64,000 bases of DNA, from positions 1,488,001 to 1,552,000 of the forward strand of contig NZ_CP092427.2 in the NCBI RefSeq assembly GCF_022374875.2. The letters run 5' to 3'. Both the position numbers and the translations under genes were made by a program. The notes under the pieces were generated by a model, which was given only the letters and a program-made list of their open reading frames with translations, ran no database searches and was not told the DNA's origin. The DNA is from Mycolicibacterium rufum. Lineage in GTDB: Bacteria > Actinomycetota > Actinomycetes > Mycobacteriales > Mycobacteriaceae. Position 1 is the stretch's first letter, and the number at the start of each line of letters is the position of its first letter. Positions 1,511-40,759 of this stretch are shown here, piece after piece.

Positions 1511-1617
1511 TTGCTGATGCGCGGATTTATTCAACGACGACCGAGATCTTGCAAGATCGAGAGGTTATAATTGAGGCGACACGAACTCCCCTTCGATCGT
1601 AGCGGAGCCGGCTTCCA

Positions 1618-4631: not shown

Positions 4632-4711
4632 CAGTCCCCCTGTCGAATCTAAAACGTTAACGCTTCAAAGCGAACCCGCAGCTCTCACCAACTATATGCT
4701 TAACATCACAC

Positions 4712-5503: not shown

Positions 5504-5572
5504 ATTGCTCCTTCGACATAGATGATCAATGTTGCGGGTAGACCTGCCAGCTGTTGGCGTAGAACCCTTGCC

Positions 5573-8237: not shown

Positions 8238-8253
8238 TAACTTCACGGTCTTT

Positions 8254-11035: not shown

Positions 11036-11051
11036 AAGCCTCGACCGCTCT

Positions 11052-11228: not shown

Positions 11229-11259
11229 ATTGCCCTAACGGCTTCATTCCACGGCGCAA

Positions 11260-12783: not shown

Positions 12784-12847
12784 CGAGAGCTCCTTCGGTA
12801 GCTCGTCATCTTTATGACACGTTCGTCCGCCACACCTAGCGCCATGT

Positions 12848-22819: not shown

Positions 22820-22964
22820 CTTCGGACTCCCCCGTGACCGTCGTGACTCGGCAATTCCAGATGCCAACGTCGGTCGTGTCATGAAATGTTCTGACGTGCG
22901 ACGGGGGTCATCGTATCGGGTGGAACCAGTTCACGGCGTTCGTTTGCCGGTTACGCTTTCGACC

Positions 22965-23852: not shown

Positions 23853-24885
23853 CCGACTTCTGCTGTGTCTGCTGGTGATCGTCGGTTCCGTCAGCGCGTG
23901 CCAGCTGCACGGCGCGGCCGTCGCCATCGGCATGACCGTGCACTACCGCAGCGCCGACACGGCGACGCTCGACCAGCAATTCGACGCGATGGCGGCGATG
24001 AAGGTCACCTGGGTGCGGGTCGACGTCGACTGGTCGGTGATCGAACCGGTGCAGAACCGGCTGAACTGGGGCGCCTCCGACGCACTCGTCGACCGGGCAC
24101 TGGCGCACGGCATGCGGGTGCTTCTCGTGCTCGCCTTCACCCCGCCGTGGACCACCAGCCGGCCTGACTCGAACCGGGTGCGCCCCGACGACCCCGCGGC
24201 GTTCGCGAACTTCGCGCGCGTCGCGGCACAGCATTACGCCGCGCGCGGGGTGCACCACTGGGAGATCTGGAACGAACCCAACACCGGCAAGTTCTGGCCG
24301 CCCGCGCCCGGCGTCGCCGAGTACGGCCGCCTGTTCCGCGCGGCGGCCGGCGCGGTACGCGATGTCGACCCCGAAGCCACCCTGCTCATCGGCGGGCTCT
24401 CCCCCACCTACGGCACCCCCACCGCCGACGTCGACCCTGCGACCTATCTGCGCCGGCTCTACGATGACGGGGCAGCACAGATCGCCGATGGAATCGCGGT
24501 GCATCCCTACACGTTTCCCTCGCTACCGACGAGCCGCGCCCAGCGCACCACCGGCGGGTTCCGCGACCTGCCCGCGCTGCACGACCTGATGGTGCAGCGC
24601 GGAGACGGCGACAAGAAGGTCTGGATCACCGAGTACGGGGCCCCCACCGGCACCGGCGCCTACGCCGTGTCCGAACAGGACCAGGCGTCGACACTGCTAC
24701 AGGCGCGGCAGGTCGTCGACACCTGGGACTGGGCCGGCCCCCTGATCTATTACGAACTCGAGGACGGCGGAACCGATCCCGCCGAGATCGAGCAGAACTT
24801 CGGGGTGCTGCGCGCCGACGGCAGCTTCAAGCTCGCCGCGATCGCGCTGATCGACACCGCCTCCGGCGTGACCCTCTTCGGCTAG
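23836..24885 (+). CDS. Secreted (probable lipoprotein) clan GH-A glycoside hydrolase, GH39-like
   Basis: 349 residues from a GTG at 23836. The N-terminus LLLCLLVIVGSVSAC is a short signal ending in a lipobox-like SVSAC, so it may be lipid-anchored outside the membrane. The rest is a (beta/alpha)8 glycosidase: VTWVRVDVDWSVIEP, WEIWNEPNTGKFW with acid/base Glu147, and KVWITEYGAPTG with nucleophile Glu266. The arrangement resembles GH39 or PslG-type endoglycosidases found inside polysaccharide loci, where they trim or release polymer. The start overlaps the GT2 gene, so the two are co-translated. Confidence 0.85.
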   Translation: MRSCASRLLLCLLVIVGSVSACQLHGAAVAIGMTVHYRSADTATLDQQFDAMAAMKVTWVRVDVDWSVIEPVQNRLNWGASDALVDRALAHGMRVLLVLAFTPPWTTSRPDSNRVRPDDPAAFANFARVAAQHYAARGVHHWEIWNEPNTGKFWPPAPGVAEYGRLFRAAAGAVRDVDPEATLLIGGLSPTYGTPTADVDPATYLRRLYDDGAAQIADGIAVHPYTFPSLPTSRAQRTTGGFRDLPALHDLMVQRGDGDKKVWITEYGAPTGTGAYAVSEQDQASTLLQARQVVDTWDWAGPLIYYELEDGGTDPAEIEQNFGVLRADGSFKLAAIALIDTASGVTLFG

Positions 24886-26375
24886 ATCTTCAGGATCTTG
24901 CGCACCGCCGGCCTGCGCTGCTCCGGCACCTTCTCCACCAGACGGTTCATCAGTCCCGGATCCACCAACGCGGTCACCTGCAGGAGGCGCAGCGCCAGCA
25001 GGTAGACGACGATGGCGGCGGGAATCGAGACCACCAGGGACAGCGCACTGCCCCACTCGACCGTGATCAGGTACGCCGCCGCGCCCGACGCCGTCGCCGC
25101 CACCGCGATGACCCCCAGCACGCGGTACGGCGGAGCGAACCCCAATTGCCTTGTCACGTAGTACGTTTCGATGAGGACGACCAGCACCTGGGCGATGCCA
25201 CGAGACCACGCCGCGCCCATCAGCCCGTAGTGCGGGGTCAACAGGAAGCCCAGCGCGACGGTCAGCGCCAGCCCCGCGGTGTTCGACACCACCAGCAGCC
25301 CCGTCTTGCCCGTGCTGTACAGCAGATACAGCGTGCTGACGCCGAGGCTGCTCAGTCCCGCCGCGATCAGCAGCACGGCGGCGGCCGGCACCGCGTCGGC
25401 GAAGTCGGCGCCGAACATCGCCGGGATCAACACCGGCGCGACCGCCGCCAGACCCACACACAGCGGCACGATCGCCATCGCGATCAGTGCCGTCGTCGTG
25501 CGGTACAGGCGCAGCATGTGCTCGTGATCGCCCATGCCGTGCTGCTCGCTGAACCGCGGCAGCAGCGCCGAGAGCAGGAACTGCGGCAGTTGCGCCGCCA
25601 CCTCGGCGATGGTGACCGCCGCGGCGAACAGCCCGACGGCCTGCAGGCCGGTGTAGTGCTCGAGGAACACCACCTGGGTGCGGCCGAACACCAGGCTGCC
25701 GATCACCCCGACCGCCCAGCTGCCGAGGGCGAATCTCACCACTTCCCGGCGCAGCGCCGACCCGACCCGCGGCTTCTTGCGTAGCAGCCGGTACACCCGG
25801 GACGCCGGCATCAGGTTGGCGGCGATGTATCCCGCCAGCGCGCCCGGAATCCCGAACAGCCACGCGCCCAGCGCCATCGCGAGAACCTTCAGCAGCGCCG
25901 ACACCGAGGACAGCCGCGCCAGTTCGTCGAACCGTTGCTCCCCGCGCAGATAGAACAGGTACAGGTCGCCGAGTTTCCACGACACGAACCACACCGCGGC
26001 GACGGTGACCACCACCTCCGGCGAGGTGCCCGCCAGCGCACCCTTGCCCGGCAGGAACAGATAGGCGACCAGCACAGCGCCCACCACGACCATGGCCGTC
26101 ATCGCGAACCGGGTGGTCGCGCCGATCAGGCCCTCGGCCTCGTCGCCGCGACCCTCCGCGCGCAGGTTCGGGATGAAGCGCTGCTGCACCACGTCGATGC
26201 CGACCGACGCGACCGTCGCCGCGACCGTCACGCACCACACCACATAGGCGAAGACACCCAGCCTCTCGGGGCCCAGCAGCCGGGCGACGATCGCGTTGCC
26301 GATGAATCCCGCCAGCGCCACCAGAGCCCCGGAGGTGAAGCCCAGCAGCGTGTTGCGGGCGAAGCTGGGCGACAT
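24882..26375 (-). CDS. Polysaccharide flippase, Wzx-like (MOP superfamily)
   Basis: 497 residues with about 14 transmembrane segments. The start ATG at 26375 overlaps the stop of the upstream GT2 gene (TGATG) and begins MSPSFARNTLLGFTSGALVALAG; the frame upstream to 26423 lies within the GT2 gene. FIGNAIVARLLGPERLGVFAYV is typical of MOP-family flippases. It would translocate the lipid-linked repeat of locus 2. Its 3' end overlaps the glycoside hydrolase stop by 4 bases in convergent orientation. It is the second flippase in the window. Confidence 0.92.
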   Translation of the reverse strand: MSPSFARNTLLGFTSGALVALAGFIGNAIVARLLGPERLGVFAYVVWCVTVAATVASVGIDVVQQRFIPNLRAEGRGDEAEGLIGATTRFAMTAMVVVGAVLVAYLFLPGKGALAGTSPEVVVTVAAVWFVSWKLGDLYLFYLRGEQRFDELARLSSVSALLKVLAMALGAWLFGIPGALAGYIAANLMPASRVYRLLRKKPRVGSALRREVVRFALGSWAVGVIGSLVFGRTQVVFLEHYTGLQAVGLFAAAVTIAEVAAQLPQFLLSALLPRFSEQHGMGDHEHMLRLYRTTTALIAMAIVPLCVGLAAVAPVLIPAMFGADFADAVPAAAVLLIAAGLSSLGVSTLYLLYSTGKTGLLVVSNTAGLALTVALGFLLTPHYGLMGAAWSRGIAQVLVVLIETYYVTRQLGFAPPYRVLGVIAVAATASGAAAYLITVEWGSALSLVVSIPAAIVVYLLALRLLQVTALVDPGLMNRLVEKVPEQRRPAVRKILKI

Positions 26376-27256
26376 CAGCCGGCCCGGCGCAGCCGCAGCA
26401 GCGACTTGGCCGCGCTCGCCCACGCCAGCGCCCCGGGCCGGCCGTACCGCACCCCCGCCCCGATCGAGGTCAGCACCCCGCGCGCCGACCCCGCCCCCAG
26501 AGCCGATCCCACCGCGGAGGTCAGCATGTAGTCCCCCCGCACCCGCGCCGACTCGCCGGCGAGTTCCCGCCTGCCCCAGTCGATGTACTCGGCGCTGCGG
26601 TCCACGCCCGCCCGGGACACCGACGCCGCGGTCCAGACGATGTCGACCAGCGGCTCCGGGAGCTGGATGATCGGCAACCCCGGGAACGTCCGCCGCACCT
26701 CGAGCAGCCAGGTCGGGTCGTCGTGAACCGATCCGGCGGCCACCGACATCGGCACCGCCTCGGCCAGGCGGCGCGGGAACACCAGCGTCGAGGTCTGCAC
26801 CATGTTGAAGGCCTGCCGCTCCCGCATCTCGAACAGGTACGGCGCGACCGGTTCGTGCGGCTCGATCAGCGTGCGCGGGCCGATGACCGGCTCAGTGCCG
26901 TCGAGGAGGCGGCGGAACCGGCACGACATGATCCACTCGTCGCCCGCCGGCGCGGCGCCCACCTGACGTTCCAGCTTCTCGGGCAGCCACCGGTCGTCGT
27001 CGTCGAGCAGCGCGATCACATCACCACCGGCGGCCTCGACACCGAGATGCTTGGCCCGGCTCGGACCCACCCCACCGGGGGTTCTGATCACCCGCACCGT
27101 CGGCGCGTCGGGCAGATCCGGTGTGCAGTCCTTGTCGAGGACGACCACCACCTCCCGGGGCGGGAGTGTTTGGCGCAGCGCCGATTCCACCGCCTGCCGC
27201 AGGCTCGGCCGGCCGATCGTGGGGATCACGACACTGACGGCGGCGTCGCGCGTCAC
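26375..27256 (-). CDS. GT2-family glycosyltransferase
   Basis: 293 residues from the GTG at 27256, which overlaps the TGA of the upstream wzy-like gene (GTGA). The N-terminal AAVSVVIPTIGRPSLRQAVES, VVVVLDKDC, GVGPSRAKHLGVEAAGGDVIALLDDDDRW (DDDD metal site) and HDDPTWLLEV identify a GT-A family 2 enzyme. The same frame is open back to 28438, but that part is the shadow of the wzy-like gene in another frame. The tail (LGAGSARGVLTSIGAGVRYG) is weakly hydrophobic. Part of the minus-strand operon wzz-wzy-GT2-wzx. Confidence 0.9.
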   Translation of the reverse strand: MTRDAAVSVVIPTIGRPSLRQAVESALRQTLPPREVVVVLDKDCTPDLPDAPTVRVIRTPGGVGPSRAKHLGVEAAGGDVIALLDDDDRWLPEKLERQVGAAPAGDEWIMSCRFRRLLDGTEPVIGPRTLIEPHEPVAPYLFEMRERQAFNMVQTSTLVFPRRLAEAVPMSVAAGSVHDDPTWLLEVRRTFPGLPIIQLPEPLVDIVWTAASVSRAGVDRSAEYIDWGRRELAGESARVRGDYMLTSAVGSALGAGSARGVLTSIGAGVRYGRPGALAWASAAKSLLRLRRAG

Positions 27257-28527
27257 GCGGGTTCCCGGAACCGGGACAGCACGAGCATCGCGAAGATCAT
27301 CCCGCTGATCGGGAACAACTGCAGGTTGGGCAGCAGCCCCCACACCGCCTCGGTCGACGCGGCCACGAAGAACGCACCGAGATAGCCGAACAGCGCGATC
27401 TGCTGGTTGCGGGCGGGAAGGGCGCGCGCGCCGAGGATCGCGACGATCAGCACCGTGGCGATCACCGCCAATCCGATCACCCCGGATTTCACCAGCGTGT
27501 CGACCACCAGGTTGTGCCCGGTGCCCACGTACGCCCATGCCGCGACGTTCGCGTTCGCCTGGGCGTCGATCAGGAACCAGTTCACCCCGAGACCGACCAG
27601 CGGGGACTGCTGCCACACCGCCAGGCTGGCCGCCCAAACCGCGGCGCGTTCGGTGAACGCGTGCGGATCCCAGGGCAGGAACGGCAGGATCAGCACCGCC
27701 GAGGCGGCGGCGCTGACGAACACGGTGCCGGCGAATCGGACCGACACCACCGACCGGATCCGGCACGCCGCCCACCACACCACCACCATCGCGACCGCGA
27801 TCACCGCCGTCCGCGACGCCGACGCGAGGACCGTCGCCATCAACACCGCGCCGCAGAACAGCCGCCACCGCATCCCGGGGATCAGCGGCACGAGGGAAAA
27901 GGCTACCGCGCAATACATTCCGAGCACGTTGCCGTGGCCGAACGGTCCGGCGAGCTCCCACCCGCCGATGATGGCCTTCTCCGAGATGAGGTTGTACATC
28001 ATGTACTCGGGTACGAGCAGGCCGCCGATCAAGGAGTACACCCCGATCCCGGTGACGAGGATCGGCAGCCACTTCAGCGCGTCGATCGACGCTCCCGTCT
28101 TCCACAACGCGATGACGAACAGGTTGGCCAGCAGGATCTTGGGTAGATCCGCGGTGGGCGGCAGGCCCGGACTGAGCACGTAGGGCAGGTCCACGGCGAG
28201 CAGCACGATGAGCAGGCCGCCGACCCGGCGGTCCGGCCGGCCGCGAGTGAAGGCCACGATGATCGCGGTGTAGGCGAGCAGCACCGCCGATCCGCCCAGC
28301 CGCGCGAGGTGGGCCAGCGCGACCTCCGAGCCGCCCGAGGCGTCCTCCAGCGGAGGCAGATCCGGCTGGTGCTTGATGAAGATGTGGTTGATCGCCTCGG
28401 GGACGACGACCAGGGCGACCGCCAGGATGATCAGCCACGTCAGCGCGTGGCGTTCCAGCCGCGGATAGCGGACGTCAGTGTTCGCGGCCTCGCTCGTCGG
28501 AGCGGCGGCGAACACGGTGTGGCGCAT
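27253..28527 (-). CDS. O-antigen polymerase/ligase family protein (Wzy-like)
   Basis: 424 residues with about 10-12 transmembrane helices. GPFGHGNVLGMYCAVAFSLV, SRTAVIAVAMVVVWW, and the loop ERAAVWAASLAVWQQSPLVGLG followed by VGTGHNLVVDTLVKSGVIG give the R...G.G...H pattern of Wzy_C/O-antigen ligase proteins. It should polymerise the repeat unit of locus 2. It starts 12 bases after the end of the Wzz-like gene and its end overlaps the GT2 start. It is only distantly similar to the locus 1 polymerase at 9683, so the two loci probably make different polymers. Confidence 0.9.
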   Translation of the reverse strand: MRHTVFAAAPTSEAANTDVRYPRLERHALTWLIILAVALVVVPEAINHIFIKHQPDLPPLEDASGGSEVALAHLARLGGSAVLLAYTAIIVAFTRGRPDRRVGGLLIVLLAVDLPYVLSPGLPPTADLPKILLANLFVIALWKTGASIDALKWLPILVTGIGVYSLIGGLLVPEYMMYNLISEKAIIGGWELAGPFGHGNVLGMYCAVAFSLVPLIPGMRWRLFCGAVLMATVLASASRTAVIAVAMVVVWWAACRIRSVVSVRFAGTVFVSAAASAVLILPFLPWDPHAFTERAAVWAASLAVWQQSPLVGLGVNWFLIDAQANANVAAWAYVGTGHNLVVDTLVKSGVIGLAVIATVLIVAILGARALPARNQQIALFGYLGAFFVAASTEAVWGLLPNLQLFPISGMIFAMLVLSRFREPA

Positions 28528-28539
28528 GACCTCGCCCGC

Positions 28540-29886
28540 TCACTTCCCGTGCGCGGCGCGCCGTGACGCGCCTGCGGTGGCCTTGCCGGCAGGCACCATG
28601 GCGACCGCGCCCACCAGCGGGGCACCGGCCCGCTTCAGCGCGGCGACACCGATCGCCAGCGCACGGCGGTGGCTCGTGCCGTAACGCACGACGAGGAGCA
28701 CTCCTTCGGCGGACGACGCTGTCAGCGCCGCGTCCTTGACCGTCATCGGCGGCGTGTCGACCACCACGTAGTCGAACCGGCCACTGAGCTCCTCGAAAAT
28801 CGTTCGCGCGGCCTGTGTTCCGAGCAGCTCAGTCGGGTTGGCGGGCAGCTCGCCGGCGGGCAGCACCGTCAGTCCGGCGAACCGGGTCTGCTGCAGTGCA
28901 TCGGTCAACGGTGTGGCACCGGCCAGCACGGTGCCGAACCCCGTCTGGTCCGGAAGGTCGAAACACGCCGCGACGCGCGGCCGGCGCAGATCGGCGTCGA
29001 CGAGGACCACGCTGCGGTCGGCCTCGGCCAGGGCGAGCGCGAGGTTCACCGCTGTCGTGGTCCGCCCCTCCCCCGCAGACGGACTCGCCACCAGCACCAC
29101 CCGCGGACCGGGCGACATCTCGAGGGACTGCAGGTTGATCCGCAACTCGCGGAACGCATCTGCGACGGTCGTATCGTCGCGCCCGAACGCCACCGGCGGG
29201 CCGTTGCGGTGACCGGTCTGGATCGGGATCTCGCCGATGACGCCGACCCCGGTCGCGGTCTCCACCGTCTCCGGGCGTCTGATCGTGCCGTCGAGACGGT
29301 CCCGCACCAACGCGGCGAGGACTCCGAGCAGCAGACCCACCACCCCGGCGATGGCCAGCGTCCGCGCCTTCTTCGGCGACACCGGGTCCTCGGGGACCCC
29401 GGCCCGCTGCTGCACCACCACCTGGGCGTTGGGTCGCGCACCGAGGTCGGGGGTCTCCAGCGCGGCGGCCATTACGACGAACTCGTCGGACAACGTGTTC
29501 GCGATGTCGCGGGCCCGGGTCGGCGAGGAATCCTGCACCATGACGTCGATCAGCACGGTGTCGGTGGGCGCCGTCGCGGTGATCTCACGCTGCAATTCGG
29601 CCGCGCTCATGTCGAGGCCGAGCTTGTCGATGGTGCGCTGCGCCAGCAGCGCCCCCTGCAGCAGCTGCGTGTAGGACAGCACCCGGCGCTGCGCGAACAG
29701 TCCGCCGTCGTTGGTCTGGGTGTTGGTGCCGTCGGACGTGGTGGAGACGAAGAGCCGCGTCGACGCCTGGTACTGCGGCGCGGTGAGCAACAGATAAGCG
29801 ACAGCCCCGAGAATGGCGACCACGAATACGCCGCAAATGATTTTCCAGCGGGTCCGCAGAATCCGCGTGAAATCGTGAACAGTCAA
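28540..29886 (-). CDS. Wzz/BY-kinase homologue with altered Walker A (possible pseudokinase)
   Basis: 448 residues from the TTG at 29886 (MTVHDFTRILRTRWKI), with AAAGG 7 bases upstream; this matches the start of the paralogue at 11260-12783 and is preferred to 29919. The N-terminal Wzz domain has two membrane helices (about 20-40 and 170-190). The kinase-like domain has VVLVDADLRRP and YVVVDTPPM, but its Walker A reads SAGEGRTTTAVN, where Arg replaces the nucleotide-binding Lys (codon CGG). The C-terminus ends GKATAGASRRAAHGK with no Tyr cluster. Chain-length control is likely; tyrosine kinase activity is doubtful. Confidence 0.92.
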   Translation of the reverse strand: MTVHDFTRILRTRWKIICGVFVVAILGAVAYLLLTAPQYQASTRLFVSTTSDGTNTQTNDGGLFAQRRVLSYTQLLQGALLAQRTIDKLGLDMSAAELQREITATAPTDTVLIDVMVQDSSPTRARDIANTLSDEFVVMAAALETPDLGARPNAQVVVQQRAGVPEDPVSPKKARTLAIAGVVGLLLGVLAALVRDRLDGTIRRPETVETATGVGVIGEIPIQTGHRNGPPVAFGRDDTTVADAFRELRINLQSLEMSPGPRVVLVASPSAGEGRTTTAVNLALALAEADRSVVLVDADLRRPRVAACFDLPDQTGFGTVLAGATPLTDALQQTRFAGLTVLPAGELPANPTELLGTQAARTIFEELSGRFDYVVVDTPPMTVKDAALTASSAEGVLLVVRYGTSHRRALAIGVAALKRAGAPLVGAVAMVPAGKATAGASRRAAHGK

Positions 29887-30195
29887 TGGTGACCTTTCAG
29901 GGCGCGACAGTGGGCTCACGTTATCTCAGAATGAATCGCACCGACGGCGATACTCACGACAGCTTTTGTGTGACGAAGACGCCGTGAATTTCGGCGCGTC
30001 GATCAACGGCCTTTCGGGGAAAGACGCCGGTATAGTCCTAGCACTGTTGCCATTACGACCGTCGACGGCGGGAAAAGAGAATCGCGTGCGGCCGCTCCTT
30101 TCAGTCTCCGTGCCGAGCCCGCTGCCGCGGACCCGGCGTGCGCTTCCCATGACCGAAAGCGTGGGTCCCCACGGCGACCATTCCGGAGTGCAGCT
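29887..30195. promoter_or_regulatory. Divergent intergenic region between the wzz-like and bcsB-like genes
   Basis: About 309 bases. A TATAGT hexamer at 30031-30036, preceded by CCGG, is a possible extended -10 for the bcsB-like gene, but I see no matching -35. The region is lower in GC than both flanking genes. No coding frame here is convincing. Confidence 0.35.
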
Positions 30196-32160
30196 ATGAC
30201 GCGGCCGGCGATTGCGCGAGCGTTGATGTCGGCTTTGTTGTTCATGGCCCCAGCAATGGCAACGATGACGACGACCGCCCACGTGCAGGCTCAGCCCAGC
30301 AACGCGGCCGACCAGCCCGCCGCGGTGACGCTGGCCTGGCGCACGCTCGGCGTCAACGACGGGCTCTACCTCGGGCCCGACAGCCCCACCACCGTCTCGG
30401 TCCCGGTGCCCCCGGGGCTGACGGCCACGCGGCTGCAGGGCACCATGCAGGCCCCGATGAACGTCGACGCCGGCTTCCTCGAAATCGCCGACGGCAACGG
30501 CACATTGCTGGCCAGCATCCCCGTGCCGCCCGCGGCGACAGCACCGCCGCAGACCCCGCTCGACATCGACATCTCCGCAGCGCGGGCGCGCGCGTCCTCC
30601 GTCGCGCTGACCTTCACCCTGCGTGCCACCGACAATCGGGACGGCTTCTGCGGACCGTTGCAGCAGCTGCCGCTGAGCGGCCTGACCACCGTGTTCACCG
30701 GTGTCGAAGCGCCCCCGACGACCGTCGCCACCTTCTTCCCCCCGGTGCTCCAGCGCGTCAGCATCTACACCCCCACCGACGCCGACACCGCAGAACAGCA
30801 GTCGGTGCTCTCGATGGTCTCGACGCTGACCCGGCTCTACCACAACCAGCCACTCGCGGTCGACGTCATCACCCAGCCGCGGGGCGCGACCCCGCCGCCT
30901 GCGGGCGAGTTCGCCCGCACGGTCGTCGTCGAATCAGGCGGCACGGCAGGACTGTCGGTCGACGGTGCGGGCAATCCCGATGTGCGCCTCCGGGTTTCGG
31001 GCAGAGGCGACGAACTCACCACCCAGGTCGGGCTGCTGGTCAACCAGCTGCAGACGCTGGTGCAGACACCGGCTGCCCGCGTCGACCAGGCCGGGGCCAT
31101 CCCCGCCGTCAGCGGCGACACCCTGACGTTCGACCAGCTGAAGATCACCGGCAAGACGGACGTGCTGCGGACCGGCACCCTCAGCGTCGGCGTCGACCGG
31201 TCTGCGCTGGGCAACGGACGCGTGAACGGTGTGACCGTGCACCTGCTCGCCGACTACACCCCGGTGCCGACGGATGACGCGGCCAGCGTGGTGATCCGGT
31301 CCAACGACCGCGTGCTGTACCGCGCGGCACTGAACGACAGCGGCCGCCTCGACGCGACGTTCGACGTCGGAGGCCGCGCGCTGACGCAGTACCTCACCCT
31401 CGACATGGCGCTCGTCTACACCCCGCACCAGACCTGTGGGCCGCTGATCGCGCCCATCACGTTCCAGGTGGACCCGAAATCCACCCTGACGCTGCACCGC
31501 GGCGGTCCGCCGATGAGCGGATTCACCGCTCTGCCCTCGGAATTCAGTCCCAGCTTCATGGTCGCGATGGACGGCAGCGACCCGGGTCAGCTCGTCGACG
31601 CCGCCCGTGTCATCAACGCCATCGCCCGCCAGACCAGCTACCAGCTGACGCCGCAGGTGGTCGACCTGAAGACGGCGGCGGATTCGCGGTCGGGGGCGTT
31701 GATCGTCGCGAAGTCGGGGGCCATCGCCGACACCACGCTCAATCCGCCGGTCGGTGGCGACGCGACGACCGTCGACATCGGGCTGCCGACCGAACTCAAG
31801 GCCGACATCGCCGACGGGCTTGGCTCGATCCAGGTCTTCGGCGATCAGCCGCATGACCGCACCGTCGTCCTCGTCACCACGACCGACGACTGGCGGCTGA
31901 TCGACCCGCTGCTCGACTACATCGACGCCCAACCCGGCGGATGGTCCGCGCTCACCGGCGACGTCCTGGCCGCCGGCGCCGCGGGCGTCCCGACCAATGT
32001 GACGGTGCGCGATGTCGCGTCCGAGAGCGCGGAAGCACCGGCGGCGGCGACGCAGAAGTCCTGGGTGCCCCTCGCCGTGGCCGCGGCCGCCATCCTGGCC
32101 GTCGCGGCGGTGGGCGCGGTGCTGCTGACGCGCCGGCGCTCCTCGGCACCGACGAAGTAA
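30196..32160 (+). CDS. BcsB-like exported protein (cellulose synthase subunit B family)
   Basis: 654 residues. A signal peptide (ALMSALLFMAPAMATMTTTAHVQAQ) precedes a large extracytoplasmic region, and one C-terminal helix (about 626-645, VPLAVAAAAILAVAAVGAVL) ends in RRR, so it is anchored with its bulk outside. BcsB-like features: alternating beta-rich blocks, RDGFCGPLQQLPLSG, TFFPPVLQRVSIYTP, and the pair TLDMALVYTPHQTCGPLIAP then ITFQVDPKSTLTLHRGG. BcsB guides nascent glucan away from the BcsA synthase. No bcsA is in the window, so it may pair with another synthase or the Wzx/Wzy machinery. GGAG precedes the ATG. Confidence 0.72.
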   Translation: MTRPAIARALMSALLFMAPAMATMTTTAHVQAQPSNAADQPAAVTLAWRTLGVNDGLYLGPDSPTTVSVPVPPGLTATRLQGTMQAPMNVDAGFLEIADGNGTLLASIPVPPAATAPPQTPLDIDISAARARASSVALTFTLRATDNRDGFCGPLQQLPLSGLTTVFTGVEAPPTTVATFFPPVLQRVSIYTPTDADTAEQQSVLSMVSTLTRLYHNQPLAVDVITQPRGATPPPAGEFARTVVVESGGTAGLSVDGAGNPDVRLRVSGRGDELTTQVGLLVNQLQTLVQTPAARVDQAGAIPAVSGDTLTFDQLKITGKTDVLRTGTLSVGVDRSALGNGRVNGVTVHLLADYTPVPTDDAASVVIRSNDRVLYRAALNDSGRLDATFDVGGRALTQYLTLDMALVYTPHQTCGPLIAPITFQVDPKSTLTLHRGGPPMSGFTALPSEFSPSFMVAMDGSDPGQLVDAARVINAIARQTSYQLTPQVVDLKTAADSRSGALIVAKSGAIADTTLNPPVGGDATTVDIGLPTELKADIADGLGSIQVFGDQPHDRTVVLVTTTDDWRLIDPLLDYIDAQPGGWSALTGDVLAAGAAGVPTNVTVRDVASESAEAPAAATQKSWVPLAVAAAAILAVAAVGAVLLTRRRSSAPTK

Positions 32161-32274
32161 CCACCCGCCCCGGTGAGGGGCCGTGACTCAGATCACTGTG
32201 TATTGCCGTAGAAGCAACTGTGGGTAATCAGCGATCATCTGACGGAGCCGCATAATGTGCACCGGGGGGATGTC

Positions 32275-33567
32275 ATGGTTACTGCGCTGGATCGTTTCCG
32301 CGAATCGTCGTTGCGTCGACGCCGACGGGCAGAACGAGCAAACTATCGTCTAGACGTTCAAGGTTTGCGAGCACTCGCCGTGCTCGCGGTGGTGGCCACC
32401 CACCTCGTCGGCTGGCCGCGCGGCGGCTTCGTCGGCATCGACGTCTTCTTCGTCATCTCTGGCTTCTTCGTCACCGACATGCTGCTGCGCGGCGCCGAAC
32501 CCACCGGGACCGTGTCGCTCGGCCGCTTCTGGCTCGACCGCGCCCGCCGCATCCTGCCCACCGCGATCGCCGTCCTGATCGCCACTTACGCGGCCTCAGT
32601 CGTGCTGCTGCCCGACCGCACGCACACCATCGGCGTCGACGCTCTGTTCTCGTTGGCGTTCCTCGCCAACTGGCGCTTCGCCGCCCAGGGCGCCGACACG
32701 TCGGGCGTCCTCGACACGGCGTCGCCGCTGCAGCACTTCTGGCCGCTGTCGATCGAGGAGCAGTTTTATCTCCTGTGGCCGCTGCTCCTGCTGGCGGTCA
32801 CGGCGCTCGTCGTCCGCCGGGCCTGGAGCCGCGACCGCTGGTTCGGTCTGATCGCCGGCGCCAGCGGCCTGCTCACCGCCGCGTCCCTGGCCTGGGCCAC
32901 CTACGAGACGGCAGTGTCCCCGCACTGGGCCTACTTCAACACGTTCGCCCGCGCCTGGGAACTCGGCGTCGGCGCCCTGCTGGCCACCGGCGTCGGCGTC
33001 TTCACCCGCATGCCGGTCTGGCTGCGCCCGCTGCTGTCCTGGGCCGGCGTCGCGCTCATCGTGGCGAGCCTACTGCTCATCAACCCCGAATCGGGTGGCT
33101 TCCCCGTCCCCTGGGCACTGCTGCCCGTCGCCGGCGCCGCGCTGGTCATCGCCGCCGGCGTCGGCAGCGAACCGATGTTCCAACCACTGCTGCGCAATCA
33201 GGCCGCCACCTACCTCGGCGACCTCTCCTATGCCCTCTACCTGGTGCACTGGCCCGTCATCGTGCTGCTCGGCACCGCGATGGAGACCAGCGTCTACTTC
33301 GACGCCAGCGCCCTGGCCCTGTCCTTCGGCCTGGCCATCGCCTGCCACCACTTCCTGGAAAGCCCTCTGCGACACGGCAGTTGGAGCGCCGTCCAGCAGG
33401 CCCGCGAGGACATGAGGCACGGTCTCTACCACGTCGAGCGATCCACCAAGGTCGCGGCCGTCGCCGCACTGGTCCTCATCACGCTGTCGGTCATCACGTT
33501 CGCCGCCCGCCCCGACCGCTACGAGCAGGCCCACCCCGCCGTTCCGTGCTGCAGGACCATCGAGTAA
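32275..33567 (+). CDS. Acyltransferase family 3 (OafA/YrhL-like membrane acyltransferase)
   Basis: 430 residues from the ATG at 32275, with a GGGGGG run 5 bases upstream; a GTG at 32257 is in frame. It has about 10 transmembrane helices and the family signature YRLDVQGLRALAVLAVVATH (the His is catalytic), FVGIDVFFVISGFFVT and FWLDRARRILPT. SPLQHFWPLSIEEQFYLLWP is the second conserved block. These enzymes O-acylate extracellular or lipid-linked sugars. The C-terminal SGNH domain of longer relatives is absent. Placed after the bcsB-like gene, it probably decorates the locus 2 polymer. Confidence 0.92.
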   Translation: MVTALDRFRESSLRRRRRAERANYRLDVQGLRALAVLAVVATHLVGWPRGGFVGIDVFFVISGFFVTDMLLRGAEPTGTVSLGRFWLDRARRILPTAIAVLIATYAASVVLLPDRTHTIGVDALFSLAFLANWRFAAQGADTSGVLDTASPLQHFWPLSIEEQFYLLWPLLLLAVTALVVRRAWSRDRWFGLIAGASGLLTAASLAWATYETAVSPHWAYFNTFARAWELGVGALLATGVGVFTRMPVWLRPLLSWAGVALIVASLLLINPESGGFPVPWALLPVAGAALVIAAGVGSEPMFQPLLRNQAATYLGDLSYALYLVHWPVIVLLGTAMETSVYFDASALALSFGLAIACHHFLESPLRHGSWSAVQQAREDMRHGLYHVERSTKVAAVAALVLITLSVITFAARPDRYEQAHPAVPCCRTIE

Positions 33568-33656
33568 CGACCGGGTGACATCTCGGCGCGGTGCTTTGCT
33601 GCAGTTCGGCAACACTGGTTAGCTTGACTTTCCTTCCCCGAACAGGCGAGGCGCCC

Positions 33657-34892
33657 ATGACCGACATCCTCGACGATGCCGCGTTGGGTACCGGTGTGCG
33701 CCCGAGCTTCCAGCAGGTGGTGTCGCTGCCCGGCGGGACCGTCGTCGGTTACGAGGCCCTGGCCCGGTGGCCCCATCTCGACGGGGCCGGTCCGCTGGAG
33801 GTGTTCGCTCACGCCGCCCGCACCGGCACGCTGGACGCGCTCGACAGCGAGTGCATCCGCCGCGCGGCGCACGGCGCACTGGAAGGCAGCAGCACACCCG
33901 GGATGCTGCTGTTGATCAACTGCGAGCCCACGACCGCGCACCCCGACCTGGCCGACGGTGCGCTCGCCGCGGCCGCCGACACCTTCCACCTGATGTTCGA
34001 ACTCACCGAGCGCGGACTGCTGGACAACCCCCGCGCACTGCTGCGCAAGGTCGACGCGCTGCGCTCACGCGGGTTCATGATCGCCCTCGATGACATTGGC
34101 GCCGAACGTGATTCGCTGGCCCTGCTCGACATCATCTCGCCGGAGATCCTCAAACTCGACATGGGGCTGGTGCAGAACCAACCCGACGACATCCAGGCCC
34201 GCACCGTCGCCGCGATCATCGGTCACCACGAACGGACGGGCGCGACGATCCTCGCCGAGGGCATCGAGACCGACCTGCACCTCGAGCAGGCGCTGGCCTA
34301 CGGCGCCACGCTGGGCCAGGGCTACCTGTTCGGCCACCCCGGCGCGCTGAGCACCGTGCCCGACGTGCGGGCGCTGCCCTCGTGGGCGCCGCGCGCTCCG
34401 GAACCGACCGGCCGGTCGGTGTTCGACCTGGCCACCCCGGGCCTCGCCGTTCGCACGGTGCGCAAGCAGACGCTGCACGAACTGTGCCGGCACATCGAAC
34501 GCCTGGCGCTGACCGCCGACAGCACCCCCATCGTGCTCGCGACCGTGCAGAACGACCGCTACTTCGACGGCGCCACGCTCGACATGTACACCCAGATCGC
34601 CCAGCGCTCACCGCTGGTCGTCGTGTTCGGCGAAGACGTGCCCGCCGAACCCGAACCGGGCATCCGTGGGGTTTCTCTGTCTCCCAGCGATCCCCTGTCC
34701 TCCGAGTGGACCGTGCTGGTGCTCGGACCCGACACCGCGGCGGCCCTGATCGCCCGCGAACAGCCCGACGGGCACCCGCATCTCGACGACGGCGACCGGC
34801 GCTTCGAATCGGTGATCACGTTCGACCGGGACCGCGTCGCCGCCGCGGCCCGCAGCCTGCTCGCCCGGCTCCCCGACGGCGCAGCCGGCTAG
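33657..34892 (+). CDS. EAL-DICT protein, probable c-di-GMP phosphodiesterase
   Basis: 411 residues from the ATG at 33657. Residues about 15-245 are an EAL domain: YEALARW (EAL at 33-35), INCEPTT, FELTERGL, IALDDIGAERDSL, ILKLDMGLV, ILAEGIET and GQGYLFGHP, so the metal and substrate residues appear intact. The loop-6 DDFG motif reads DDIG. Residues about 265-400 match a DICT sensory domain (KQTLHELCRHIERLAL, TVQNDRYFDGATLDMYTQIA, VVVFGEDV). It would break down c-di-GMP under sensory control. Its stop overlaps the stop of the convergent PAS-GGDEF gene in a shared CTAG. Confidence 0.9.
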   Translation: MTDILDDAALGTGVRPSFQQVVSLPGGTVVGYEALARWPHLDGAGPLEVFAHAARTGTLDALDSECIRRAAHGALEGSSTPGMLLLINCEPTTAHPDLADGALAAAADTFHLMFELTERGLLDNPRALLRKVDALRSRGFMIALDDIGAERDSLALLDIISPEILKLDMGLVQNQPDDIQARTVAAIIGHHERTGATILAEGIETDLHLEQALAYGATLGQGYLFGHPGALSTVPDVRALPSWAPRAPEPTGRSVFDLATPGLAVRTVRKQTLHELCRHIERLALTADSTPIVLATVQNDRYFDGATLDMYTQIAQRSPLVVVFGEDVPAEPEPGIRGVSLSPSDPLSSEWTVLVLGPDTAAALIAREQPDGHPHLDDGDRRFESVITFDRDRVAAAARSLLARLPDGAAG

Positions 34893-36526
34893 CGGCTTCG
34901 CGTCACCCGGAAAGACGTTCCCGTGCGCAGGATCTTGGCCTGATACATCGCCGCGTCCGCGTCGCGCAGAATGTTCTCGACGGTGCGCTCATCCTCGGCC
35001 GACAGCTCGGTGACGCCGATGCTGATGCTGACCCGGCGTAGCCGTCCGCCCACATGGATCGGGTCCGCGAACTCTCCGTGCATGCGCGCGGTGAGAGCTT
35101 CCAGCGCAGGGCGGTCGAGGATGCCGTACAGCAGGATCACGAACTCGTCGCCGCTGAGGCGGCCGACGAAATCGCCGTCCCGCACGCTGTTGCGCAGCCG
35201 TCGCGCGGTCTCCCGCAGCGCGCCGTCGCCGGCGTGGTGGCCCAGATCGTCGTTCATGGCCTTGAGGTTGTCGAGATCGACGAACAGCACCGCCGCCAAG
35301 CGCTGACTGCCCCTTGTCGTGGCGTCGGTGAGGCGCGCCTCGATCTGCGCGCGGTTGGGTAGCCCCGTCAGCGGATCGTGGTGAGCCTGATAGGCCAGGT
35401 GGGTCTTCGCGTTGTGTTCGGCGGTGATGTCGGCGAACGAGACCAGGAGAGCCGAGTTCTCCGCATCGGCGGGATCGAGCAGACAGCAGTTGATCGACAG
35501 CCACGCCCGCGATCCGTCCGCCCGCTCCACACCGAGCACCACGTTCTCCAGCGGCGCGTTGGCGAACATCAGCTTGACGGAACTCATTTCGTTGTCGTCG
35601 ATCTTGACGCCCCGGCGATCGAAGATGGGGAACGCGAGCGTCCCGTTGGCGTAGTCCTCGACGAGCCCGTCGGTGTCCAGCCGCAGGATGCGCCGGGCCG
35701 CCGGGTTGATCGACTGGGGTTTCCCCCGCCGGTCGAGCACGACGACGCCGTCATGCAGGGACCGCACGACGGACTCGAAGTGGATCTCCGCCCGCCGCTG
35801 CGCGGTGTAGTCCGAACACAGCACCACGTAGCCATCGTCCATCGCCGTCACCGACAGCCGGACGTTCACCGCAGTGCCGCCCGCCGAGCGGTGCGTCGCG
35901 TGCACCACGCCGCCGCCGGCGACGATGCCGGGCAGGTCGACGTCGGCGTCGACGGCTTCGGTCAGAGGCAGGCCCAGAGCGCGCTCCACCGGGCGGCGGT
36001 AGATCGCCGCGGCGGCGGCGTTCCAGCTGGTGACGATGCCGTCCGCGGTCGTGGCGATGATGGCGTCGCTGACATGGTTCACCAGCGCCGCCTGGTAGCG
36101 CAGCGCCGCCTCGGCCGCCTTCTGCGCGGTCAGGTCGCGGAAGATCACCTGGTAGGCGGGGTCACCGTCCCAGGTGGTCAGCACCGACACCACCTCGACC
36201 TCCAGTGGGCTGCCGTCGAGGCGTAGCAACACGGCCTCCGACGCCGGCGAGCTGTCGCCCTCCTCGGACAGCGCGAGAATCCGGGTCAGCATGTCGCCGA
36301 CCGAGTCGGGGTGGACGAAGTCCGTGATCGGACGCCCCACCAACTGCTCCTCGCTCTGGGCTCCGAAGCCGCGGACGCCCGCAGGATTGACGTAGACCAC
36401 GCGACCGTTCGAATGCACGCACATGGGACCGGGGCTGAGGTCGACCAGCCGCCGGTAACGCTCCTCCGCCGTGTCGACGTGGCGTCCGGGGTTGCCCCTC
36501 GTGGCCGAATCTGACGTTGTGCTCAC
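34889..36526 (-). CDS. Multi-PAS GGDEF protein, probable diguanylate cyclase (SGDEF variant)
   Basis: 545 residues from the GTG at 36526, which has AGGGG 5 bases upstream. Three PAS-like domains fill residues about 20-360 (RYRRLVDLSPGPMCVHSNGRVVYVNPA; LVNHVSDAIIATTADGIVTSWN; VVRSLHDGVVVLDRRGKPQSIN). A GGDEF domain follows: HDPLTGLPNRAQIEARL, FVDLDNLKAMNDDLGHHAGD, and the active-site motif RLSGDEF with Ser instead of the first Gly (458-462). An RDGD sequence exactly five residues before it matches the inhibitory RxxD I-site. No transmembrane segment, so cytoplasmic. It lies tail-to-tail with the EAL gene. Confidence 0.92.
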   Translation of the reverse strand: MSTTSDSATRGNPGRHVDTAEERYRRLVDLSPGPMCVHSNGRVVYVNPAGVRGFGAQSEEQLVGRPITDFVHPDSVGDMLTRILALSEEGDSSPASEAVLLRLDGSPLEVEVVSVLTTWDGDPAYQVIFRDLTAQKAAEAALRYQAALVNHVSDAIIATTADGIVTSWNAAAAAIYRRPVERALGLPLTEAVDADVDLPGIVAGGGVVHATHRSAGGTAVNVRLSVTAMDDGYVVLCSDYTAQRRAEIHFESVVRSLHDGVVVLDRRGKPQSINPAARRILRLDTDGLVEDYANGTLAFPIFDRRGVKIDDNEMSSVKLMFANAPLENVVLGVERADGSRAWLSINCCLLDPADAENSALLVSFADITAEHNAKTHLAYQAHHDPLTGLPNRAQIEARLTDATTRGSQRLAAVLFVDLDNLKAMNDDLGHHAGDGALRETARRLRNSVRDGDFVGRLSGDEFVILLYGILDRPALEALTARMHGEFADPIHVGGRLRRVSISIGVTELSAEDERTVENILRDADAAMYQAKILRTGTSFRVTRSR

Positions 36527-36707
36527 CCTACCCCTGACAAAACGTTTGCTGCGCAAGCACACTCGGCAAATCTGACAGTCCACGACACGTGTGCCCCGTA
36601 CATCAGTATGGCCGTGACCCGGCGTTTGGGCTAGTGATCTGCCGTCGATTGGGTGTTAATCGAGCTAGGGGCCCATCGGGCACCGCCGACGACAAAGGGG
36701 AGATCAG

Positions 36708-37868
36708 ATGACCACAACACACATGGGTATCGCAGGAATCGGGGCGGTCACCGGCTACGGGTGGGGGCGGGAGACGTTGTGGAACGGGCTGGCGAGCGGG
36801 AAGCCGGCCGCGACGCTGTACCCCGGTTTCGGGCCCGGCGAGAACGACGACGCCTGGCTGGCCCGGATCGCTGACGAGGGCGATCCGCGCGACGGCCTGA
36901 GCCGCTTCGGCCAGGCGCTGCGCGCCGCGGCGCGCGAGGCCATCACCGACGCCCGCGCGCGCGGCTGGACTCCCGGGCCGCGGGTCGGCCTGCTGCACGC
37001 GGTCGTGATCGCCGAGGTCGAGGGTTGGCGCGACTTCTACCTCAAGGACCACGCCAGCCGGCGAGTCCGCGACTACCTGACGCTGATGCCGTCCACTCCG
37101 GTGTCAATGCTGATGCGCGAGTACGGCTTTCACGGCCCGGCGATGAACGTGTCGGCGATGTGCGCCTCGGGCAACGCCGCGCTCATCACCGCCAAGATGT
37201 GGCTCGACGCGGGCATCGTCGACGACGTCGTGTTCGTCTCGACCGACCTGTCGTTGACCCCGGAGAACGTCGAACACTTCGTCCGGCTCGGCGTCGGCGT
37301 CGTCGACACCGATCCGCTGGACGCCTGCCGCCCGTTCCAGCAGGGCAGCCGCGGGTTCCCGGCCGGTGAGGCCGCGGTGGCGTTCGTGCTCTCGCGCCGC
37401 AGCGACGCGCCCTACGTGCACGTGCTCGGCGGGGCGATGTCGCACGACGCCTTCCACCTCACCTCGGTGGATCCGTCCCGGACCGAGGTGGACCGCTGCG
37501 TTCTCGACGCGCTGGCCTGCTCCGGCGTCGACGCCGCCGACATCGCCTACATGAACGCGCACGGACCCGGTACCCAGCAGTGCGACACCGTCGAGGCCGC
37601 GGTCCTCGACGAGGTACTCGGCGGCACGGCCCACATCTACTCGGTCAAGCCGCTGACCGGGCACTGCCAGGGCGCGGCGGCCGCCGTCGAGGTCGCGTCC
37701 GCGGCGCTGGGCTACGCCCAGCAGCAGGTGCCGGCCCCACCCACCGTCGCGCCCGGCCATCCCCGGCTGCTGGACGGCCTCACGCCGATGCGGCAGGGGC
37801 TGACCCTGAAGACGTCGCTGGGCATGGGAGGGCACAACGCCGCCGTCGTCCTCGCCCCTGTCGCATGA
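36708..37868 (+). CDS. Stand-alone beta-ketoacyl synthase (FabF/KAS II-like)
   Basis: 386 residues from the ATG at 36708, with AAGGGGAG 5 bases upstream. It is a thiolase-fold condensing enzyme: SAMCASGNAAL with nucleophile Cys152, YMNAHGPGTQQCD, VKPLTGHCQGAAA and GMGGHNAAVVL give the Cys-His-Lys-His set of elongating ketosynthases. MGIAGIGAVTGYGWG is an altered N-terminal KAS motif, and the usual FGFGG is LGMGG. No ACP, reductase or acyltransferase partner is nearby. It precedes sseA by 24 bases on the same strand and may share its transcript. Its lipid product is unknown. Confidence 0.9.
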   Translation: MTTTHMGIAGIGAVTGYGWGRETLWNGLASGKPAATLYPGFGPGENDDAWLARIADEGDPRDGLSRFGQALRAAAREAITDARARGWTPGPRVGLLHAVVIAEVEGWRDFYLKDHASRRVRDYLTLMPSTPVSMLMREYGFHGPAMNVSAMCASGNAALITAKMWLDAGIVDDVVFVSTDLSLTPENVEHFVRLGVGVVDTDPLDACRPFQQGSRGFPAGEAAVAFVLSRRSDAPYVHVLGGAMSHDAFHLTSVDPSRTEVDRCVLDALACSGVDAADIAYMNAHGPGTQQCDTVEAAVLDEVLGGTAHIYSVKPLTGHCQGAAAAVEVASAALGYAQQQVPAPPTVAPGHPRLLDGLTPMRQGLTLKTSLGMGGHNAAVVLAPVA

Positions 37869-37892
37869 GCGCTCAGCGGTAGGCTGACACCC

Positions 37893-38785
<893 letters not shown>

Positions 38786-38789
<4 letters not shown>

Positions 38790-39199
38790 GCATGCCGGCC
38801 GCGCTGGCCGAGGTGGTCTCCGACTTCCAGGACGTCGAGGGCCAGGACAAGCTCGCGATGCTGCTCGAGTTCGCCAACGAGCTGCCCGCGCTGCCGTCGA
38901 CCCTCGAGGAGGCGGCGATGGAACCGGTCCCCGAGTGCCAGTCCCCGCTGTTCCTGCACGTCGACGCCGACGACCGCGCGCACGTGCGGCTGTACTTCAG
39001 CGCCCCGGCCGAAGCCCCCACCACCCGCGGGTTCGCCGCGATCCTGGCGGCGGGCCTGGATGGGCAGTCGGCCGACGACATCCTCGCCGTGCCCGACGAT
39101 TTCTACACCGACCTCGGGCTGGGCGCGTTGATCAGCCCGCTGCGGCTGCGCGGCATGTCGGCGATGCTGACTCGGATCAAGCGCCGACTGCGGGGCTGA
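38786..39199 (+). CDS. SufE-like sulfur acceptor protein
   Basis: 137 residues from an ATG at 38786 overlapping the sseA stop. It has a SufE fold pattern: [32 protein letters not shown], the conserved sulfur-accepting Cys in VPECQSPLF, and a C-terminal [21 protein letters not shown]. SufE proteins accept persulfide sulfur from cysteine desulfurase; in mycobacteria this gene (Rv3284 type) is coupled to sseA, implying a shared sulfur relay. In M. tuberculosis accA3 is the next gene, but here it lies about 18 kb further on. Confidence 0.94.
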
Positions 39200-39256
39200 C
39201 GACGCACTACGCTTGACTATTCACGGGTGTGCCGACGTCTCGAAGGGAGTCTTTCG

Positions 39257-40759
39257 ATGACATCCGGCGTATCGCCGATTGCCGGGCAGGCGCAGAAGCC
39301 TGCTGAGGACGGACCAACCCCCTTCTCCGAGGCCGATTACGTCCGAGGAATGACGCGGCTGACCGACGTCATCCAGGAGCTGTCGTTGGTACGCACGGCA
39401 CACGAGGTGCAGCGGATCGTCGCCACCACTGCGCGGGAGGTGACCGGCTGCGACGGAGCCACTGTCGTGATCCGCGAGCATGACATGTGCTTCTACGCCG
39501 ACGAGGACGCGATCACGCCGCTGTGGAAGGGCAGGCGCTTCCCGCTGGAGGCGTGCATCAGCGGGTGGGTGATGCTGCACAAGCAACCGGCGGTGATTCC
39601 CGACATCTACGCCGACGCCCGCGTCCCCCACGACGCGTACCGACCGACCTTCGTCAAGAGTCTGGCCATGGTGCCCATCCGCCGTCGCGATCCCCTCGGC
39701 GCTCTCGGGACGTACTGGGCGCAGCTGCGGCACCCCACCGAGCGCGAACTGGCGCTGTTGCAGGCACTGGCCGACGTGACGTCGGTGGCGATGGAGAACG
39801 TCCAGGTGCACGCGGTGCTCGAGCAGCAGATCGGAGAGCGCCCGGCGTCGTCGGATTTTCTGACGCTGTCCGGCGTCCCGTCGGACAGCCGGGACACCAC
39901 GTTCGCCGCAGCGTTCGCCAACGCACCGATCGGTATGGCCGTCATCGGGCTCGACGGGAGTTTCCAGCGCGTCAACGGCGAGTTCTGCCGGATCACCGGG
40001 TACAGCTCGGAAGCGTTGATGGGCATGACGTTTCAGGACATCACCCATCCCGATGATCTCGACATCGACCTCGCCGAGGCGTCGCGACTGCTCGCCGGTG
40101 ACATCGCGAGCTACCAGATGGACAAGCGGTATTACTCCCAAGGCGGTCACGTCGTCTGGGTTCGGCTGTCGGTCTTCCTCGTCCACGACGACGCCGGTGA
40201 GCCGCAAGCCTTCATCTCCCACATCGAAGACATCTCCGCGCGCCGCCGCGATGAGGAAATGCTGAGACGGCAGGCGACGCTCGACGCCCTCACTGGCGTC
40301 TACAACCGCAACCGATTCGACGAGGAGCTGCAGCGGTTCCAGGTGCGGGCAAGCCGGCACGCGACCGTCGACGAGGCGGCCGTGTTCATGATCGACCTCG
40401 ACGGTCTGAAGCAGGTCAACGATCAACACGGGCACGGAGCGGGTGACGCCTACCTGAGGAACGTCGCAGACATCATCAGCCGTCGGCTGCGCCTGTCGGA
40501 TGTCCTGGCCCGGATCGGTGGCGACGAATTCGTCGTGCTGCTGCCCCGGACCACCGCGGCGCAGGCCCAGCAGATGGCGCAGACGTTGGTGGAGCGCGTC
40601 GACGCGCTGTCTCCGGGCAGCATCTGCATCGGCATCGCGATGATCACGCCGGACACCATCGGGGAAGCGCTCGAGCGCGCCGACCGGGCCATGTACAGAG
40701 CCAAACGTCAGGGCGGAAGCCACTGGTGCGGTCCTGAGCCCTCACTTCTCACGGACTGA
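39257..40759 (+). CDS. GAF-PAS-GGDEF protein, probable diguanylate cyclase
   Basis: 500 residues from the ATG at 39257, which has GGGAG 7 bases upstream. Domain order: a GAF domain (about 30-190; VIREHDMCFYADEDAITPLWKG, ISGWVMLHKQPAVIPDIYADARV), a PAS domain with PAC (about 215-335; FANAPIGMAVIGLDGSFQRVN, ISARRRDEEMLRR), and a GGDEF domain (about 340-500; LDALTGVYNRNRFDEEL, IDLDGLKQVNDQHGHGAGD). The active site is canonical, RIGGDEF at 421-425, with RLSD five residues upstream as the RxxD inhibitory I-site. Likely a soluble c-di-GMP synthase sensing a small ligand. It follows the sufE-like gene by 57 bases. Confidence 0.94.
   Translation: MTSGVSPIAGQAQKPAEDGPTPFSEADYVRGMTRLTDVIQELSLVRTAHEVQRIVATTAREVTGCDGATVVIREHDMCFYADEDAITPLWKGRRFPLEACISGWVMLHKQPAVIPDIYADARVPHDAYRPTFVKSLAMVPIRRRDPLGALGTYWAQLRHPTERELALLQALADVTSVAMENVQVHAVLEQQIGERPASSDFLTLSGVPSDSRDTTFAAAFANAPIGMAVIGLDGSFQRVNGEFCRITGYSSEALMGMTFQDITHPDDLDIDLAEASRLLAGDIASYQMDKRYYSQGGHVVWVRLSVFLVHDDAGEPQAFISHIEDISARRRDEEMLRRQATLDALTGVYNRNRFDEELQRFQVRASRHATVDEAAVFMIDLDGLKQVNDQHGHGAGDAYLRNVADIISRRLRLSDVLARIGGDEFVVLLPRTTAAQAQQMAQTLVERVDALSPGSICIGIAMITPDTIGEALERADRAMYRAKRQGGSHWCGPEPSLLTD

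What the first reader, a model, noticed from the sequence alone, without database searches (positions are those of the whole stretch)
30196..40759. BcsB-like export protein without a BcsA, next to three c-di-GMP enzymes
Seen: a BcsB-like envelope protein (30196-32160) with no cellulose synthase in the window, then an acyltransferase, an EAL-DICT protein, a PAS-GGDEF protein and a GAF-PAS-GGDEF protein. In proteobacteria BcsB works with BcsA, which is activated by c-di-GMP through PilZ. No PilZ domain is seen here. Inference: this could be a c-di-GMP-tuned exopolysaccharide system in an actinobacterium in which BcsB supports a Wzy-type or distant synthase.
Basis: partly seen in the sequence, partly recalled or inferred. 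Interest (0 to 1): 0.78.

Follow-up and report, generated by a model that had tools for sequence, protein, structure and literature searches.

The report
Cellulose-synthase partner protein lacking its synthase
An environmental mycobacterium carries the export partner of bacterial cellulose synthase but no such synthase; the partner sits instead inside a sugar-coat gene cluster of a quite different type, a pairing that recurs across the genus and hints at how these bacteria move polysaccharides outward.

Summary

The main result is comparative. In 396 genomes of the genus, 235 have a BcsB homologue and 117 a BcsA-like GT2; 116 have both, 119 only BcsB, one only GT2. Among 97 BcsB genes with neighbourhoods (some from the same contigs), 72 of 82 without the GT2 have a Wzx or Wzy within 9 kb, against 0 of 15 GT2-paired ones. 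A single clade of EPS-linked genes is rejected on a 48-row subset (AU p 2e-5). Most simply, BcsB left BcsA and joined Wzx/Wzy clusters at least twice.

The c-di-GMP part is weak: the three enzymes are real, but their linkage to BcsB was seen in one clade only.

The parts
30196..32160 (+). BcsB-fold envelope protein: N-terminal signal-like segment, BcsB ectodomain (model 41-607), single C-terminal TM anchor (625-648), no BcsA partner found
28540..29919 (-). Wzz chain-length protein fused to a tyrosine-kinase-type ATPase, divergent from BcsB
   Evidence: PF02706, PF13614; TIGR01007 over its cut-off
27253..28527 (-). Wzy-type polymerase (Wzy_C, about 10 TM)
   Evidence: (PF04932, 37.5 bits, cut-off 31.7)
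26375..27256 (-). small GT2 glycosyltransferase, no TM, no QxxRW
   Evidence: (PF00535)
24882..26423 (-). Wzx-type flippase (about 12 TM)
   Evidence: (PF01943, PF13440)
23836..24885 (+). glycoside hydrolase with a signal-like N-terminus, sequence relative of PslG
   Evidence: PF00150; PslG 5bx9 E 9.7e-17
22881..23852 (+). GT2-like gene by reading only; no Pfam hit at 1e-4 on the trimmed frame
21716..22882 (-). GT4 glycosyltransferase
   Evidence: PF00534
20759..21712 (-). NAD-dependent sugar epimerase/dehydratase
   Evidence: PF01370
19647..20807 (-). GT4 glycosyltransferase
   Evidence: PF00534
32257..33567 (+). membrane acyltransferase (Acyl_transf_3); homologues also lie in the Maf-sseA gap of L138 and L139, which have no BcsB there
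33591..34892 (+). EAL-DICT putative c-di-GMP phosphodiesterase; seen near BcsB in one clade only
34889..36583 (-). PAS-GGDEF putative diguanylate cyclase; seen near BcsB in one clade only (its genus-wide distribution was not searched)
39227..40759 (+). GAF-PAS-GGDEF putative diguanylate cyclase; seen near BcsB in one clade only (genus-wide distribution not searched)

Best explanation
This is a BcsB homologue that has separated from its BcsA-type synthase and now serves a Wzx/Wzy-dependent exopolysaccharide pathway in the envelope of an environmental Mycolicibacterium. Repeat units are built by the GT4 and GT2 enzymes, flipped by Wzx, joined by Wzy and sized by the Wzz-kinase. The membrane-anchored BcsB ectodomain receives the polymer outside the inner membrane and guides it through the periplasm toward the mycomembrane, perhaps as a ring like the crown that E. 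coli BcsB forms. Shown by calls: the fold, the lack of a detectable BcsA and PilZ, the repeated neighbourhood with Wzx/Wzy, purifying selection, a C-terminal anchor. Inferred: the physical partnership with Wzy/Wzz, polymer guidance, the ring.
For: Full-length BcsB fold. Own genome: no PF03170 hit, one BcsB homologue, no PilZ, no BcsA-like GT2 at E 1e-30 with all 10 candidates scored; 13 PF13641 loci, none with TED/SED and QxxRW in one frame, while 3 of 3 GT2s from pairs are positive. Genus: 119 of 235 BcsB-bearing genomes lack the GT2, 1 of 117 GT2-bearing genomes lacks BcsB. Neighbourhoods: Wzx or Wzy within 9 kb for 72 of 82 unpaired BcsB genes and 0 of 15 paired ones; 0 of 20 control loci around sseA (G000, G019 and G078, known to hold the EPS cluster there, were left out of the control). 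Orphan loci fetched before their neighbours were seen: 39 of 42 BcsB genes in 40 loci. EPS-linked genes are not one clade (AU p 1.93e-5, 48-row subset). dN/dS 0.20-0.22 against four relatives; Wzx about 0.27, Wzy about 0.19 against one. C-terminal TM in 97 of 97. No Wza-type exporter domain (PF02563) in the genome. Entry titles name BcsB pentamers and hexamer crowns.
Confidence: 0.6

Rival explanations
1. A c-di-GMP-tuned EPS system: the EAL-DICT and two GGDEF proteins set a local c-di-GMP level that controls this cluster, through a non-PilZ receptor such as a transcription regulator.
For: Enzymes present with intact motifs. Two of the genome's 17 GGDEF domains lie within 10 kb of BcsB. Homologues of the PAS-GGDEF and ketosynthase genes accompany the EPS cluster in all 4 other loci of the window's clade (L031, L032, L106, L124) and in 0 of 20 sseA loci of other species (species known to hold the EPS cluster there were left out). 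A mycobacterial non-PilZ receptor, Lsr2, is reported (PMC10808224: start of the abstract; one search showed only a reference line).
Against: One clade only, so one event. EAL-DICT homologues near BcsB in 2 of 29 and 1 of 40 loci; absent from L106 and, at E 1e-60, from its genome G078. No PilZ in the genome. No homologues of these genes were hit in the other 27 of 29 and 38 of 40 BcsB loci; unrelated c-di-GMP genes would not have been seen.
Confidence: 0.2
2. BcsB works in trans with an unrecognised processive synthase elsewhere in the genome.
For: 13 PF13641 loci exist in the genome; the profile test could miss a very distant synthase.
Against: None of the 13 has TED/SED plus QxxRW in one frame. 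119 species have BcsB without the known GT2, and unpaired BcsBs lie beside Wzx/Wzy in 72 of 82 examined cases. The two small GT2 genes of the cluster have no TM or QxxRW.
Confidence: 0.12
3. BcsB is a docking platform for polymer modification (acylation by the 32257-33567 transferase, trimming by the PslG-like hydrolase) rather than for export.
For: PslG relative in the cluster, with homologues near BcsB in 12 of 29 loci. Acyltransferase next to BcsB in window, L106, L124. A BcsA-BcsG3-BcsB6 complex is named among the solved structures (9b8v title).
Against: Acyltransferase not hit in L031 and L032 and found without BcsB in L138 and L139.
Confidence: 0.12
4. The gene is a relic of a lost BcsA-BcsB pair.
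For: GT2-BcsB pairs are plausibly the older state: present in Gordonia (L059) and in both halves of the tree.
Against: Intact frame, dN/dS 0.20-0.22, 79% identity kept to M. kyogaense, EPS-linked relatives at several chromosomal sites.
Confidence: 0.03

Closest known systems
BcsB of the bacterial cellulose synthase (E. coli, Rhodobacter)
   Same: Whole ectodomain fold, single C-terminal TM
   Different: About 13-16% identity to the E. coli chains, no Pfam match, no BcsA or PilZ found, sits in a Wzx/Wzy cluster
Mycobacterial GT2-BcsB modules (M. neoaurum and M. cosmeticum are cited as having cellulose synthase components: PMC7952908 and PMC6364259, passages seen; whether those are the modules seen here was not tested)
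   Same: Homologous BcsB (25-38% to the window protein)
   Different: Those modules hold a BcsA-like GT2 (TED, QRSRW, no PilZ hit) and, in most, two further membrane proteins; the window's genome lacks the GT2
Wzx/Wzy-dependent EPS pathway
   Same: Wzx, Wzy, Wzz-kinase, GTs; five initiating PHPT domains in the genome, three of them 4-20 kb left of the window
   Different: No Wza-type exporter domain; a BcsB protein added
Psl of Pseudomonas
   Same: A PslG hydrolase; Wzx/Wzy type (recalled)
   Different: Psl has no BcsB (recalled)
B. subtilis Yda and Listeria Pss operons
   Same: BcsB-like protein in an EPS operon with c-di-GMP control (recalled; B. subtilis rings for PF03170)
   Different: They keep a GT2 synthase (recalled)

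Membership tests
BcsB fold family | BcsB ectodomain fold over its full length | tested here: met
BcsB fold family | Score over Pfam PF03170 cut-off | tested here: not met
   no hit for the window protein; a group III relative scores 19.3 bits, cut-off 21, E 3.9e-4
BcsB fold family | C-terminal TM anchor | tested here: met
   (97 of 97)
BcsA-BcsB cellulose synthase | BcsA-type GT2 with TED and QxxRW | tested here: not met
BcsA-BcsB cellulose synthase | PilZ domain for c-di-GMP | tested here: not met
BcsA-BcsB cellulose synthase | beta-1,4-glucan product | not testable with these tools
   needs chemistry
Wzx/Wzy-dependent EPS cluster | Wzx flippase, Wzy polymerase, Wzz chain-length protein | tested here: met
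Wzx/Wzy-dependent EPS cluster | Initiating phosphoglycosyltransferase | tested here: met
   5 matches in the genome, none inside the cluster itself
Wzx/Wzy-dependent EPS cluster (Gram-negative type) | Wza outer-membrane exporter | tested here: not met
c-di-GMP-controlled EPS system | c-di-GMP receptor acting on the machinery | tested here: inconclusive
   no PilZ; other receptors not tested

The most novel reading that the evidence does not exclude
A BcsB crown is a general, synthase-independent conduit that carries Wzx/Wzy-made polymers across the mycobacterial envelope, doing the work that Wza does in Gram-negative bacteria; it was recruited at least twice in the genus from a PilZ-free cellulose-synthase-like module.
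Probability: 0.35. Interest if true: 0.8.

Novelty: new variant of a known kind. Interest (0 to 1): 0.6.

Why it matters
BcsB is known as the partner of BcsA, and Wzx/Wzy pathways as a separate export route. A BcsB that works without BcsA inside Wzx/Wzy clusters would break that division and suggest a part of the unknown route by which mycobacteria move polysaccharides through their periplasm and mycomembrane. It also warns against reading a BcsB annotation as a sign of cellulose: about half of the BcsB-bearing species sampled in the genus lack the synthase (119 of 235). The question can be tested with one gene deletion.

Tried and rejected

Rows dropped and choices made: A1 uses 26 of the 32 matches (L020, L021, L029, L030 and two places without loci left out; L021 has a stop mark). 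A3 uses the window and 28 of 29 loci (L041 left out as near-copy of L039). One search listed 150 BcsB places, more were not listed; I fetched 40 of the 87 unpaired ones. Searches scored only 3 and 4 candidates a genome; for the 37 same-genus genomes, with all listed candidates scored, the same 11 have the GT2 at 1e-120. The tree uses 48 rows picked by me from 97, and its groups were named. The 20 sseA control loci were picked from the list, leaving out G000, G019 and G078. L053 was trimmed and left out because its frame runs long upstream.

Papers: searches listed no paper that I recognised as describing BcsB with Wzx/Wzy in mycobacteria; the lists of 37, 38 and 69 were cut (15 of 20, 15 of 49, 12 of 73 shown). 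Passages only were seen of PMC7952908, PMC6364259, PMC12167362 (M. marinum EpsH, said to have a BcsA domain), PMC4594306, PMC7112194 and PMC10808224 (there one reference line); the other papers were seen as listings.

Full report

No BcsA in the genome. The same genus has GT2-BcsB pairs: a GT2 with TED and QRSRW motifs and no PilZ hit in the two scanned with Pfam, beside a BcsB and usually two other membrane proteins. They sit next to genes that I recognise from memory as fgd1, pta and ackA, or between rpsQ (recalled) and a sulfatase gene (atsA recalled). A profile of 11 such GT2s finds none in the window's genome. Of 13 PF13641 loci there, none carries TED/SED and QxxRW in one frame; three GT2s from pairs are positive. 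There is no PilZ hit and no Wza-type exporter hit.

What it sits in. BcsB is divergent from a Wzz-kinase gene, followed by Wzy, a small GT2, Wzx, a PslG relative, a GT2-like gene, GT4s and an epimerase. For the 28 mycobacterial loci L031-L058 (the 29th is a Gordonia), 25 have Wzx or Wzy within 9 kb of the group I BcsB, 2 have a PHPT marker only, 1 has none. In several the homologues of the window's glycosyltransferases are missing while BcsB stays, which fits a role in export or assembly more than in making one particular sugar unit (inference).

Genus-wide pattern. Among 396 genomes, 235 have BcsB at E 1e-15 and 117 the GT2 at E 1e-120: 116 both, 119 BcsB only, 1 GT2 only. Of 150 BcsB places that one search listed, 63 have the GT2 within 6 kb and 87 do not; 72 of the 87 lie in genomes with no such GT2. 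I fetched 40 of the 87 before seeing their neighbours. They hold 42 BcsB genes; 39 have Wzx or Wzy within 9 kb and 3 have none. Over all 97 genes with neighbourhoods: 72 of 82 without the GT2 have Wzx or Wzy, 2 have PHPT only, 1 Wzz only, 7 none; of 15 with the GT2, 0 have Wzx or Wzy, 3 have Wzz only. These rows include copies of the same contigs (92 different sequences). Twenty control loci around sseA, chosen without the three genomes known to hold the EPS cluster there: 0 with Wzx or Wzy, 4 with PHPT.

History. The tree splits into two deep halves, each holding GT2-paired and EPS-linked BcsBs. The window's group is one clade of 37 rows, 35 of them EPS-linked, support 100; a second clade of 34 rows, all EPS-linked, support 100, lies in the other half, most of it beside genes that by reading and recall are metS and rpfB. 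On a subset of 48 rows, forcing the 32 EPS rows into one clade is rejected (lnL 317 lower, p 1.9e-5); the groups were named after the first tree. With a GT2-BcsB pair also in Gordonia (L059), the simplest reading is an older pair from which BcsB was recruited at least twice into Wzx/Wzy clusters; direction and root are inferred. Five orphan BcsBs at the rpsQ-atsA site (L066, L067, L112, L118, L120) have neither GT2 nor EPS markers near; I cannot explain what they do. The window gene is under purifying selection much like Wzx and Wzy.

c-di-GMP. The three enzymes are real and look active; the genome has 17 GGDEF domains in all. The block accD5-Maf-sseA-sufE is present in 20 of 20 loci of other species. 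In two of these (L138, L139) a homologue of the acyltransferase lies in the Maf-sseA gap, and in L139 an EAL-DICT gene follows sufE, without Wzx, Wzy, PHPT or BcsB hits. Homologues of the PAS-GGDEF and ketosynthase genes occur in none of the 20. They occur in all four other loci where I saw the EPS cluster at this site (L031, L032, L106, L124), which form one clade with the window. So the linkage to BcsB looks like a single event. It may be meaningful in this lineage, but it is not a general part of the BcsB-EPS unit.

Mechanism. Best reading: membrane-anchored BcsB takes the Wzy-made polymer outside the inner membrane and leads it outward, perhaps as a crown. The fold, the missing synthase, the recurrent neighbours and the constraint are shown; partner contact, guidance and the ring are inferred. 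Failing the BcsA and PilZ tests means that this is not a BcsA-BcsB cellulose synthase; it does not speak against a BcsB-like role in polymer passage. Published work seen in passages (PMC7952908, PMC6364259) says that some mycobacteria have cellulose synthase components and that the M. [quoted passage not shown] the lists of my searches (three of them cut) showed no report that I recognised of BcsB in mycobacterial Wzx/Wzy clusters.

Noticed in passing
332-14692: A second Wzx/Wzy cluster with rhamnose genes, a polysaccharide pyruvyl transferase, GT4s, Wzz-kinase and a DUF4012 protein, without a BcsB of its own.
   Followed up: partly
23836-24885: A relative of the Psl hydrolase PslG (E 1e-16) in a mycobacterial EPS cluster.
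   Followed up: partly
41004-41819 and 60904-61638: Two SigF/SigB-like sigma factor genes about 19 kb apart; 15 of 20 sseA loci of other species show one minus-strand homologue and no plus-strand one, so the copy beside the GAF-PAS-GGDEF gene looks extra.
   Followed up: partly
L060-L064, L071, L075-L078: A four-gene PilZ-free synthase-like module in mycobacteria: membrane protein, BcsA-like GT2, BcsB, GT-C-like membrane protein.
   Followed up: partly
L066, L067, L112, L118, L120: BcsB genes between rpsQ and atsA with neither GT2 nor EPS markers near, frames intact.
   Followed up: no
36708-37868: A stand-alone ketosynthase-like gene that travels with the PAS-GGDEF gene in the window's clade.
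   Followed up: no
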